From: Aneurinibacillus soli
GTDB taxonomy: Bacteria; Bacillota; Bacilli; Aneurinibacillales; Aneurinibacillaceae
Reading direction: 5' to 3'
Assembly (NCBI RefSeq): GCF_002355375.1
Contig: NZ_AP017312.1
Span: 1,009,001 to 1,073,000 of the forward strand
DNA length: 64,000 bases
Under the pieces are notes generated by a model. The model was not told the DNA's origin. It saw only the letters and a program-made list of their open reading frames with translations, and did no database searches. Positions 24,332 through 28,064 of the stretch are shown here, piece after piece (position 1 is the stretch's first letter; each line of letters starts with the position of its first letter). The translations under genes were made by a program, and so were the position numbers.

Positions 24332-24659
24332 GACAGAAGCTCCTTTTCTGTGAAAATAGATAAACTCATTAGTTTTTTACTTCGTTTTCCTAATTAGGTT
24401 ATCTATTTTCCCCTAGGTATAATACTTTCTTACACATTTATCAGTATCAGCTTCAAAGCGCCCATCTTGAAAGGGAAGACATATTAAAGAAGTGTTGGAA
24501 TTTATGTGCGTTTTCGAGAACTATCTAACGTTTCTGTAACATGCTCAGAACATATCATTTTTTCCCCCAGACAAGGCGTATAAGCACCAAATTAATAGTA
24601 TAATTATGTATATTATACTTAAAACTTAAAAATTATTAATTTGAAAATGGGGTTAAAAG
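24332..24659. other. A+T-rich noncoding junction before the McrBC island
   Basis: No gene seen. It contains a TATAAT at 24599-24604 without a recognisable -35 element at the right distance. It could hold the island promoter. Confidence 0.4.
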
Positions 24660-26534
24660 ATGATTGATACAGCTAAAAAGCAGCGAAAAGAATATACAGA
24701 ATGGTTGCGTCAGCGCAAAAAATCGAACGGCGAAAACTACTCTGAAAATACAGTAAACTCCTACGCGTCCTCATTATCAAGCGCACCGGGAAAACTTACA
24801 GGTATTACATTAAAAACTACTAACTTGTATGAAATAACTTCAGTGGAAAAATTCAAAAAAATAAGAACGCTCATAGAAGGAGCTGAAAACTTTGAGGAAG
24901 TAAACATTAATGCTGGCAACAAGGCGTTTCAATATGCTTTACAATACTATGAAGAATTTCTTGTGCAACAGGAACAAGAAGATCCATCAAATACAAGTCC
25001 CACGGTAGAAACAAAGATTAGTGAAGTAGATAAAAACACCATTTTATACGGACCTCCGGGAACTGGAAAAACATATAACACCGTTGCTTATGCAGTTGCC
25101 ATTATTGAGAATACAACGCTGAAGACGATTCAGCAAGAAATTGATGCAACTGGTTATGAGAGTGTTTTAGCGCGGTATCGTACATACAAACAGAATGGAC
25201 AGATTGCATTTACTACCTTCCATCAATCGTACGGATATGAGGAATTTATTGAGGGAATTAAACCTAAGATTGAAACAGAAAGCACAGACCAAGATGGGAA
25301 CAACGTTTCCTATGAAATCAAAGCAGGTATTTTCAAGCAATTTTGTGAGAAAGCACAAATGCCAATCATTGAGGATAGTAACGAATATGGAATTCGTAAA
25401 GAGCCGACGATATGGAAATTATCATTGGGAGGAGCACGGGAGAATTCGATAAAAAGAGATTGCCTCAATCATAACAGAATAAGAATCGGTTGGGATGATT
25501 ACGGTGAAAACATAACTAAAGAAACCGACTTCAGTATATCTGGAGGAGAGAACATTCTTTCCCGTTTCATCGAGGAAATGATGATTGGCGATATTGTACT
25601 CGTTTTGTACGATGAGAAAACGATTGATGCTATTGGGGTTGTTACTGGCGAATACGAGTGGCTAAACCATGTAGAGGACTATAAAAGATGCCGAAGCGTA
25701 AACTGGCTGGCCAAGGATATTCGAGAAAATATATATGAACTGAATGGGAACAAGGTTATGACATTAGGAGCAGTTTACAGGCTGAACCGGATCAGCCTTT
25801 CAGACGTGCTGAAAATTTTGAAGAAACATAATCTTTCTTTAAGTACCGCCATTAAAGAGAATGTAAATAATTATGTTTTCATTATCGACGAAATAAATCG
25901 TGGCAATATTTCTAAGATATTCGGTGAATTAATTACCTTGATTGAGCCGACTAAGCGTATTGGGCAATCTGAAGAAATTAAATTGTATCTTCCATACTCA
26001 CAAGTTGAATTCGGCGTTCCTAATAATGTTTATATCCTCGCAACTATGAATACAGCAGATAGATCTATCGCCCGACTTGATACTGCTTTGCGTCGTCGTT
26101 TTCAATTTGCGGAAATGATGCCAAATCCTCAATATCTTGACGATATCAGTATTCAAGGAATCGACCTTTCTGCTATGCTCACGAAAATGAATCGTCGTAT
26201 TGAGGTATTGTATGACAGAGAGCATGCTATCGGACACGCTTATTTCATGTCTTTGACAAACAATTGTTCTTTGGATAATCTTGCGCACATTTTCAAAAAT
26301 GTTATTATTCCTTTGCTGCAAGAATATTTTTATGAAGATTATCACTTGATCCAGTTGGTTCTTGGCGACAATAACAAAAACAGGGATGAGCAATTTATCC
26401 ACACTAAACAGATTGATGTAACAGAACTGTTCGGAAATACAAACAAAATAGATATTGACGATGAAGCTTCCTATGAAATCAACGAACAAGCCTTCACCAA
26501 TATTAATGCTTATCGCAAAATTTACAGTGTGTAG
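24660..26534 (+). CDS. mcrB: McrB-type NTPase with nested EVE/PUA-like domain
   Basis: Predicted motor and recognition subunit of an McrBC (type IV) restriction system. Order of parts in 624 residues: an N-terminal helical domain (about 1-100), where YTEWLRQRKKSNGENYSENT resembles the SAM-like core-binding fold of tyrosine recombinases; Walker A GPPGTGKT at about 131-138; then an insertion (about 245-395) opening EPTIWKLSLGG and containing DIVLVLYDEKTIDAIGVVTG, which resembles an EVE/PUA-like modified-base-binding domain; then Walker B IIDEINRGN near 407-415 and the McrB hallmark MNTADRS near 463. The spacing from Walker A to Walker B is about 270 residues, far more than in E. coli McrB, because of the insertion. 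Followed by mcrC after 9 bases. The A+T-rich composition suggests acquisition. Confidence 0.9.
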   Translation: MIDTAKKQRKEYTEWLRQRKKSNGENYSENTVNSYASSLSSAPGKLTGITLKTTNLYEITSVEKFKKIRTLIEGAENFEEVNINAGNKAFQYALQYYEEFLVQQEQEDPSNTSPTVETKISEVDKNTILYGPPGTGKTYNTVAYAVAIIENTTLKTIQQEIDATGYESVLARYRTYKQNGQIAFTTFHQSYGYEEFIEGIKPKIETESTDQDGNNVSYEIKAGIFKQFCEKAQMPIIEDSNEYGIRKEPTIWKLSLGGARENSIKRDCLNHNRIRIGWDDYGENITKETDFSISGGENILSRFIEEMMIGDIVLVLYDEKTIDAIGVVTGEYEWLNHVEDYKRCRSVNWLAKDIRENIYELNGNKVMTLGAVYRLNRISLSDVLKILKKHNLSLSTAIKENVNNYVFIIDEINRGNISKIFGELITLIEPTKRIGQSEEIKLYLPYSQVEFGVPNNVYILATMNTADRSIARLDTALRRRFQFAEMMPNPQYLDDISIQGIDLSAMLTKMNRRIEVLYDREHAIGHAYFMSLTNNCSLDNLAHIFKNVIIPLLQEYFYEDYHLIQLVLGDNNKNRDEQFIHTKQIDVTELFGNTNKIDIDDEASYEINEQAFTNINAYRKIYSV

Positions 26535-26543
26535 GTAACGGGC

Positions 26544-27845
26544 ATGAGTCAACGGTATACTATCAAAGAATATGATTCATTTACAAGGAATGTAACAGTA
26601 TGGTCTAGCAATTATCATTCCTTGCCCGAGTCTACTTTTGACAGGTTGGAGCAATTCATCTTGTCAAGAAAGCAGGATACAGATACGGATGCTTTGGAAT
26701 TGATGACTGTTTCCAGCAAACGTGGGATTGGCAAAATTATCAGTGCTAAAAACTATGTGGGTTTAATTACTATGAGTGATGGCACTGCAATTGAAATTTT
26801 ACCCAAGCTGTATACAAAAGACAAGGAAAGCTCAGAAGTTGAAATCAAAAGAGTTTTTTTGGATATGCTGAAATTCCTTAAGGAAATACCGTACAAGACT
26901 TTTAATATTTCCAGCTTGCATATTGAGAAAAATAATATCTTTGAGATTTTTATCCGTATGTTTATTCAAGAGATCTATACATTGGTCAAACGCGGACTAA
27001 AATCTGCTTATATCGAACACCAAGATAATGAATATTTTTATAAAGGAAGGATCAATTTTTCGCAGCATATTAAATCAAATTTTGCTCATAAAGAACGCTT
27101 TTATATCGAATATGACATCTTCAGTGTAGATCGCACAGAAAACAAACTGATCAAGACAACTTTAGAATTCCTGAGAAAAGTCAGTTCATGCAGGAAAAAT
27201 AAAAAGGATCTTCGTACATTATTAACAGCGTTTGAAACAGTGGATTATTCAATACATCCAGATCAGGATTTTACGAAAATTACCTTCGACCGTAATATGA
27301 AGGAATATGAAACCATTTTAAAATGGTGCAGTATCTTTCTAAAGAATAAAAGCTTTACCACTTTTAAAGGTAGCGACGTAGCTTATGCGCTTTTGTTCCC
27401 TATGGAGAGAGTTTTTGAAAACTATGTTGCTGGACAATTAAACAAGGTTTTAGACAAATCTTACTATCAGATCAAGATACAGGATCAGTCTTACCATTTG
27501 TTTGATGATCCAAAACGATTCCTTCTGAAACCTGACATTGTAGTGCAGGATTGCAATTCTTCCATCGTACTTGATACAAAGTGGAAACTACTCTACCCAA
27601 ATCAAAGTAATTATGGCGTTTCACAAGCAGATATGTACCAAGTATATGCGTATAATAAAAAATACTCTTCTAAGATGATTTTTCTATTATATCCTTGGAC
27701 AACCGCCATAAACAATATAACCGAACCTATTACTTATCAGAGCAGGGACGATGTAACTGTTCGTATTGGTTTCATAGATTTAATAAATATCAACAATAGT
27801 ATTCGAAATCTTGCCCTCGAAATTGATGAAATGATGAGAGTATGA
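26544..27845 (+). CDS. mcrC: McrC-type nuclease subunit
   Basis: A 433-residue partner of McrB carrying the PD-(D/E)xK nuclease. The catalytic residues are visible as KPDIVVQD (D331) followed by LDTKWK (D344 and K346), and the N-terminal half has the beta-rich McrB-contacting region. It starts 9 bases after mcrB and shares its A+T-rich base use. Expected to cut DNA bearing modified bases when McrB loops or translocates; the actual target modification is unknown. No associated methyltransferase is present, consistent with a type IV system. Confidence 0.9.
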   Translation: MSQRYTIKEYDSFTRNVTVWSSNYHSLPESTFDRLEQFILSRKQDTDTDALELMTVSSKRGIGKIISAKNYVGLITMSDGTAIEILPKLYTKDKESSEVEIKRVFLDMLKFLKEIPYKTFNISSLHIEKNNIFEIFIRMFIQEIYTLVKRGLKSAYIEHQDNEYFYKGRINFSQHIKSNFAHKERFYIEYDIFSVDRTENKLIKTTLEFLRKVSSCRKNKKDLRTLLTAFETVDYSIHPDQDFTKITFDRNMKEYETILKWCSIFLKNKSFTTFKGSDVAYALLFPMERVFENYVAGQLNKVLDKSYYQIKIQDQSYHLFDDPKRFLLKPDIVVQDCNSSIVLDTKWKLLYPNQSNYGVSQADMYQVYAYNKKYSSKMIFLLYPWTTAINNITEPITYQSRDDVTVRIGFIDLININNSIRNLALEIDEMMRV

Positions 27846-28064
27846 AATTATTACCTTCTTCTTTCGCGCTGCCGTCCTCTTTTTTATCTTTTCTCCTTTC
27901 CAGTTAACCATGCCGAAGCATATTTTCATGCTGGAGCTTATGACTAAGGGATAGATGGCTACGGTAGTTTTCTTATGTATGTGTTGAAACCGGGTAAACG
28001 TATTGGATACGAAATGCAAGAATTGATATGCTAAGGAAAGAGTGAACTTATGAGGAGGGTATAC

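What the first reader, a model, noticed from the sequence alone, without database searches (positions are those of the whole stretch)
24660..27845. McrBC system with an EVE/PUA-like reader nested inside the McrB NTPase core
Between Walker A (about 131-138) and Walker B (about 407) McrB carries an extra block of roughly 150 residues opening EPTIWKLSLGG and containing DIVLVLYD and AIGVVTGEYEW, which looks like an EVE/PUA-type modified-base-binding fold. EVE-McrB associations are known, but readers are usually terminal; here the reader sits within the motor, which could couple base recognition directly to NTP hydrolysis. The target modification is unknown.
Basis: partly seen in the sequence, partly recalled or inferred. 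Interest (0 to 1): 0.7.

Follow-up and report, generated by a model that had tools for sequence, protein, structure and literature searches.

The report
McrB motor with nested PUA-type reader
A two-gene bacterial defence system whose ring motor carries, inside its engine domain rather than at its end, a small module shaped like known readers of chemically modified DNA or RNA bases; the nested layout is real and shared by many bacteria, and the general phenomenon has been reported in print.

Summary
McrB (24660-26534) and McrC (26544-27845) lie on a 3.66-kb island missing at that spot in relatives. About 165 residues sit between helix 2 and the Walker B strand of McrB. The block folds alone at pLDDT 94.5; its best solved matches are EVE and YTH structures (Z about 11). 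By profile it belongs with N-terminal readers of other McrBs (99.0%) and of Mrr-type nucleases like PADLOC's PDC-S02 (98.8%); Pfam's EVE model misses it. It is no one-off: 77 of 80 genome contigs kept from a similarity search, 7 viral contigs and 7 plasmids, one of Deinococcus radiodurans R1, carry it nested. One close relative lacks the insert, one has another domain in its place. Bell et al. 2024 already report frequent insertions, likely specificity domains, in McrB GTPase domains. Coupling of base reading to GTP hydrolysis is untested; the target modification is unknown.

The parts
24660..26534 (+). McrB, AAA+ GTPase, 624 aa, with nested reader
   Evidence: ORF; AAA_5 E 7.5e-14; model matches T. 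gammatolerans McrB 6ut5 Z 26.5, rmsd 3.5, 323 aligned
24660..24980 (+). N-terminal helical domain, aa 1-107, shared with Brevibacillus/Paenibacillus relatives; function unknown
   Evidence: five helices in the model; aligned with six relatives; only a weak Pfam integrase-SAM hint, E 0.19, below cut-off
25050..25073 (+). Walker A GPPGTGKT, aa 131-138
25329..25358 (+). helix 2 of the AAA+ core, aa 224-233, just before the insertion
   Evidence: DSSP of model; the name helix 2 follows PMC7680126 and recalled AAA+ topology
25359..25865 (+). whole inserted block, aa 234-402 (site B)
   Evidence: absent in insert-less McrBs; boundaries from alignment A3
25395..25832 (+). PUA-superfamily EVE/YTH-like reader domain, aa 246-391
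   Evidence: range aligned to EVE structures in the full model; model of the domain alone pLDDT 94.5; PDC-S02 E 6.8e-9
25878..25901 (+). Walker B FIIDEINR, aa 407-414
26544..27845 (+). McrC endonuclease subunit, 433 aa
   Evidence: PF10117 E 1.3e-91; only PF10117 match in the genome at E 0.001
24333..27992 (.). mcrBC island, replaced by 36 bases in the nearest relative (L201)
   Evidence: blastn/tblastn against eight loci of relatives; GC 32-38% in the 500-base windows from 24500 to 27999, 43-52% in the flanks, 40% in the window across the left edge

Best explanation
This is a modification-dependent (type IV) McrBC restriction system. Its specificity module, a PUA-superfamily reader of the EVE/YTH type, sits not in the usual N-terminal place but inside the AAA+ motor, between helix 2 and the Walker B strand. 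Shown here: the anatomy, the predicted fold, homology to N-terminal McrB readers and to Mrr-type nuclease readers, the adjoining McrC, and absence of both genes from that spot in relatives, which points to horizontal gain. Also inferred: six readers, each tied to the motor at both ends, decorate the ring. The base recognised is not known (5mC/5hmC and 6mA are the precedents).
For: Fold: domain model pLDDT 94.5, pTM 0.89; Foldseek best PH1033 1wmm E 3.2e-5, then YTHDF2 chains; Z 11.3 over 116 residues at 2.7 A to 1wmm, Z 10-10.8 to YTH domains, Z 10.0 to the 5mC/5hmC endonuclease VcaM4I 6yex. Homology: each of two PDC-S02 models matches 68 of 74 inserts; hhalign 99.0% to N-terminal McrB readers over 127 columns, shuffles at most 0.9%. 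Conserved residues among 74, the window included: W349 in 74, position 252 aromatic in 73, G310 in 73, D311 in 72, position 334 aromatic in 66. An McrC ORF follows McrB in 80 of 81 parsed loci; in the other the contig ends. Precedents: VcaM4I EVE flips 5mC/5hmC (PMC7897488, abstract and passages); TgMcrB YTH targets 6mA (stated in PMC7680126, passages).
Against: No binding or restriction data. Pfam EVE misses the window's block, and 2 of 74 members hit it only weakly, best E 0.061. Profile similarity to EVE proteins covers 35 columns only (90.3%); the N-terminal McrB readers reach 28.6% and the PDC-S02-like readers 1.9% against the same EVE set, and the nested family reaches 5.9% against the site-A EVE pair. 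The base pocket was not mapped residue by residue. The N-terminal domain, aa 1-107, could be the real specificity domain.
Confidence: 0.78

Rival explanations
1. Coupled reader: because the domain is spliced into the motor next to helix 2, capture of a modified base changes the nucleotide cycle, so GTP hydrolysis is gated by the modification, unlike E. coli McrBC.
For: Both ends are tied to core elements: helix 2 ends at aa 233 and the Walker B strand starts at aa 405. In TgMcrB aromatic residues of the helix-2 inserts surround the McrC tip (PMC7680126 passages). The position is kept across a large clade.
Against: No test was possible. The exit segment, aa 391-400, has pLDDT 76, which suggests some give. 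In E. [quoted passage not shown] A relative without the insert (L030) keeps the core motifs and is followed by a 440-aa ORF where McrC is expected.
Confidence: 0.2
2. The nested domain is no longer a base reader but a structural or protein-docking part of the ring, and target choice rests on the variable N-terminal region.
For: The open frame before Walker A ranges from 16 to 957 residues among 81 loci, as variable specificity modules would. One relative lacks the domain (L030) and one has another domain there (L111).
Against: Two Desulfovibrio MAG contigs (L082, L084) have only 16 residues of open frame before Walker A, which leaves no room for another reader, though a frameshift is not excluded. 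Aromatics are strongly conserved in the block. The same reader family stands in nucleases with an Mrr_cat domain.
Confidence: 0.15
3. The reader binds modified or structured RNA rather than DNA.
For: YTH domains, several of them solved with m6A RNA, are among the best fold matches. CoCoNuT McrB relatives with YTH-like domains are predicted to target RNA (PMC11090510 abstract and passages).
Against: The partner is a standard McrC whose PF10117 match covers nearly the whole model, and the same reader family is fused to Mrr_cat restriction-endonuclease domains in L018 and L021.
Confidence: 0.1

Closest known systems
McrBs with insertions in the GTPase domain (Bell et al. 2024 eLife, PMC11090510)
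   Same: Domains inserted in the McrB GTPase domain, described there as frequent and likely encoding specificity domains (section 6 read)
   Different: The sections and passages I read do not name the inserted domain type, the insertion site, or exchange and loss; supplementary files could not be read
EVE-McrB fusions (Bell et al. 2020, PMC7641849)
   Same: PUA-superfamily reader in an McrB; the paper calls EVE-McrB the most common architecture among EVE proteins in defence systems (passages)
   Different: Nested position; the block is not detected by the Pfam EVE model
Thermococcus gammatolerans McrB (6ut5)
   Same: AAA+ core matches at Z 26.5; it has a YTH-type reader, one of the fold classes matched by the insert
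   Different: Its YTH reader is N-terminal and targets 6mA (PMC7680126 passages)
PADLOC PDC-S02 (here: nucleases with an N-terminal reader and Mrr_cat)
   Same: Reader is homologous: E 6.8e-9 for the window McrB; two models each match 68 of 74 members
   Different: No motor; that L018 and its like are PDC-S02 members is taken from length and reader match, they were not scanned against PADLOC
VcaM4I EVE-HNH endonuclease (6yex)
   Same: PUA-type fold, Z 10.0 over 127 residues
   Different: Reader is N-terminal, fused to HNH, with no motor (PMC7897488)

Membership tests
McrBC type IV restriction system | McrB AAA+ GTPase core with Walker A, Walker B and NxxD signature | tested here: met
   GPPGTGKT, IIDEINR and MNTAD in P0001; fold match to TgMcrB and EcMcrB; NxxD named as a signature in PMC11090510
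McrBC type IV restriction system | adjacent McrC with PF10117 | tested here: met
   E 1.3e-91, 9 bases downstream
McrBC type IV restriction system | cleavage dependent on base modification and GTP | not testable with these tools
   needs biochemistry
PUA superfamily, EVE/YTH-type domain | predicted beta-alpha barrel matching EVE/YTH structures | tested here: met
   strand-helix order of the model agrees with the EVE pattern given in PMC7641849
EVE domain in the strict Pfam sense (PF01878) | match to PF01878 above its cut-off | tested here: not met
   no hit for the window; 2 of 74 members weak, best E 0.061; profile-profile 90.3% over 35 columns only
PDC-S02-type reader | homology to the N-terminal region of PDC-S02 models | tested here: met
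   68 of 74 members for each of two models; hhalign 98.8% to four PDC-S02-like readers
PDC-S02 system | nuclease with reader plus Mrr_cat and no motor | tested here: not met
   the window protein has an AAA+ core and no Mrr_cat hit; this defining feature is my reading of L018/L021, not a published definition
PUA superfamily, EVE/YTH-type domain | base-binding pocket | tested here: inconclusive
   conserved aromatics, no pocket mapping or ligand data

The most novel reading that the evidence does not exclude
The McrB motor has two docking sites, one between the Walker A helix and the next strand and one between helix 2 and Walker B, where PUA-type readers and other modules have been inserted, exchanged and lost; at these sites reading a base gates the GTP cycle directly, a working principle different from E. 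coli McrBC.
Probability: 0.18. Interest if true: 0.72.

Novelty: new member of a known kind. Interest (0 to 1): 0.42.

Why it matters
The window's reader also has no Pfam or NCBIfam name, and the plasmid records call such proteins only 'AAA family ATPase', 'McrB family protein' or 'hypothetical protein' (the 20 of 23 rows listed), so the readers are easily overlooked.

Tried and rejected
Strict EVE label: rejected, Pfam EVE does not hit. 'Common to all McrBs': rejected, 40 of 49 sampled rows lack a domain-sized insert. 'Unique to this genome': rejected. No record of the phage collection matched the block (tblastn, E limit 1e-5). Sequence searches of solved structures with the block found nothing convincing. 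The N-terminal domain gave no plasmid match and was not folded alone. Loci L031, L044 and L045 were not analysed further. No row of other PUA types such as ASCH or SRA was among the 50 shown; that absence is not evidence.

Rows dropped: 147 loci were offered for the core tree; fourteen gave no parsable core (L096, L100, L101, L104, L118, L119, L120, L161, L162, L165, L167, L171, L173, L174), leaving 133 (130 different sequences). Of these, 57 were dropped by hand as near-copies, long branches or thinning, leaving 76 for the careful tree. Labels in the trees come from insert length, with L111, L163 and L164 set by hand. Four of the 80 genome contigs were not parsed (L081, L096, L100, L110). L111 was left out of A4 (other domain) but is in A3. 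The EVE set holds 12 of 17 matched loci: L184, L186 and L190 were dropped because the cut-out near a contig end failed or looked doubtful, L181 and L191 because the gene is in broken pieces. Its N-terminal reader sets hold 12 of the 13 clear rows (L143 left out), and its PDC-S02-like set 4 of 6 reader-bearing nuclease-like loci (L017, L024 left out).

Full report
Observation. The window holds mcrB (24660-26534, 624 aa) and mcrC (26544-27845, 433 aa; PF10117 E 1.3e-91) on the plus strand. In McrB, Walker A is at aa 131-138 and Walker B at aa 407-414, and the quoted motifs lie in the block between them. Neither Pfam nor NCBIfam matches the window's block; three PADLOC PDC-S02 profiles do, the best at E 6.8e-9 over aa 285-393.

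Where it sits. The AlphaFold2 model of the whole protein (75-row alignment, pLDDT 90.7, pTM 0.74) shows helix 2 ending at aa 233, a compact domain from about aa 246 to 391, and the Walker B strand at aa 405-410. The model matches T. gammatolerans McrB 6ut5 at Z 26.5 (rmsd 3.5, 323 aligned) and E. coli McrB 6ut6 at Z 21.0. In the same list EVE and YTH structures match within residues 229-391 at Z 10.3 to 11.2.

What it is. Folded alone, the domain has pLDDT 94.5 and pTM 0.89. Foldseek ranks PH1033 (1wmm, 2hd9) and MJECL36 (2p5d) first, E 3.2e-5 to 6.1e-5, followed by YTHDF2. VIA-align gives 1wmm Z 11.3 (2.7 A, 116 aligned), YTH domains 10-10.8 and VcaM4I 10.0. That PH1033 and MJECL36 are EVE-family proteins is recalled, not from a call. 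By sequence profile the nested family matches N-terminal readers of other McrBs at 99.0% over 127 columns and 97.9% over 103 (two sets), PDC-S02-like readers at 98.8% over 102, and EVE proteins at 90.3% over 35 columns only. The site-A EVE pair reaches 5.9%, other site-B domains 1.7% and 0.2%; GTPase core, McrC and the shuffled controls stay at or under 0.9%. The N-terminal readers match EVE at 28.6% and the PDC-S02-like ones at 1.9%, so the tie to EVE proper rests mainly on fold. Each of two PDC-S02 models matches 68 of 74 nested domains, and 2 of 74 weakly match Pfam EVE. W349 is kept in 74 of 74; position 252 is aromatic in 73, 278 in 70, 334 in 66. Which of these form the pocket was not determined.

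How common and where. A search of 299 genomes of the window's phylum with the Walker B region gave 49 McrB-like matches in 46 genomes at E 1e-15 (19 more loci fetched). Both site-A inserts are Pfam EVE domains over the cut-off (E 9.5e-7 and 1.6e-8), and a third case, L212, has the same spacing and 47% identity to one of them. A profile of the nested domain finds the same family N-terminal to Walker A in 13 of the 49 (best-domain E 2.3e-6 or better), weakly in 2 more, and in none of the 49 both N-terminal and nested. L143 has it N-terminally plus an EVE at site A, and so has L212.

Beyond the sample. It is also nested in 7 viral contigs (nine loci, two contigs met twice) and in all 7 plasmid records read of the 23 that matched. 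In one search, 81 loci had both motifs parsed, 203 to 296 residues apart, L111 included. Named hosts include Brevibacillus, Paenibacillus, Leucobacter, Desulfovibrio, Acinetobacter, Pseudoalteromonas, Kluyvera, Pedobacter and Zunongwangia, and plasmids of Deinococcus radiodurans R1 (DR_RS16175), Exiguobacterium and Priestia. McrC follows in 80 of the 81 loci; L042 ends with its contig.

Gain, loss and exchange. In the quick tree 94 of 133 rows, near-copies included, carry the nested reader. On the careful tree of 76 cores with inserts left out, nested rows need four changes of state, as many as starred branches force; all 50 fall in one group of 53 (support 93/66) together with L131 and L030 (no insert) and L111 (other domain). 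L030 lies inside nested rows at 100/97, and L111 pairs with nested L057 at 98/89. One gain with two losses and one exchange, or two gains with one loss and one exchange, fit equally well. L030 is from a viral-contig assembly, so an assembly deletion cannot be ruled out; its McrB frame is open and a 440-aa ORF follows.

Setting. The two genes lie on a 3660-base stretch (24333-27992). In the nearest relative (L201) both flanks align and 36 bases stand between them. None of eight loci of relatives, six of the same genus and two of the same family, encodes McrB or McrC in the 1.5 kb before the downstream peptidase gene; one or both of the two upstream genes were found there in all eight. GC is 32-38% inside against 43-52% in the flanks. 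It is the genome's only PF10117 match.

Mechanism. Shown: anatomy, predicted fold, homology, linkage to McrC, absence from the site in relatives. Inferred from VcaM4I (PMC7897488, abstract and passages) and TgMcrB (PMC7680126, passages): base flipping into a pocket. Inferred from E. coli McrBC (PMC6624300, passages and section 7): GTP-driven movement and McrC cleavage. Against a simple picture, PMC7680126 argues that DNA does not pass through the McrB pore.

Print. Bell et al. 2024 (PMC11090510: abstract, sections 6 and 14, and passages) say that McrB GTPase domains frequently contain insertions likely encoding specificity domains. In what I saw of the papers listed by searches (listings, and passages of PMC7641849, PMC10602043 and PMC12707154), none describes this insertion site or the two-site pattern. 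Supplementary files could not be read and most subscription papers are not held. Novelty therefore rests on detail, not on the idea.

Verdict. Real, correctly placed, and by prediction correctly read as a PUA-type domain, but a member of a published kind; the site mapping, the relation to N-terminal readers and the natural insert-less relative are the useful additions.

Noticed in passing
G000:C1:2579973-2580143 (-), outside the window: A 57-residue McrB fragment, 54% identical to aa 529-585, in a 112-aa open frame: perhaps a remnant of a second McrB.
   Followed up: no
L143 (G005:C8) and L212 (G325:C17): McrBs with two PUA-type readers: the PDC-S02-type one N-terminal and an EVE-type one nested after the Walker A helix.
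   Followed up: partly
   Followed up: partly
window 24660-24980: N-terminal five-helix domain with faint integrase SAM-like similarity (E 0.19), shared with Brevibacillus and Paenibacillus McrBs; could bind DNA.
   Followed up: partly
L020 and L133 (G120:C1): McrB with the same reader family placed N-terminally and no insert, a natural contrast to the window protein.
   Followed up: yes
L193 (G398:C41), same genus as the window: A nested-reader McrB in a congener, 45% identical to the window's over aa 121-571; that genome has none in the 1.5 kb before the peptidase gene.
   Followed up: partly
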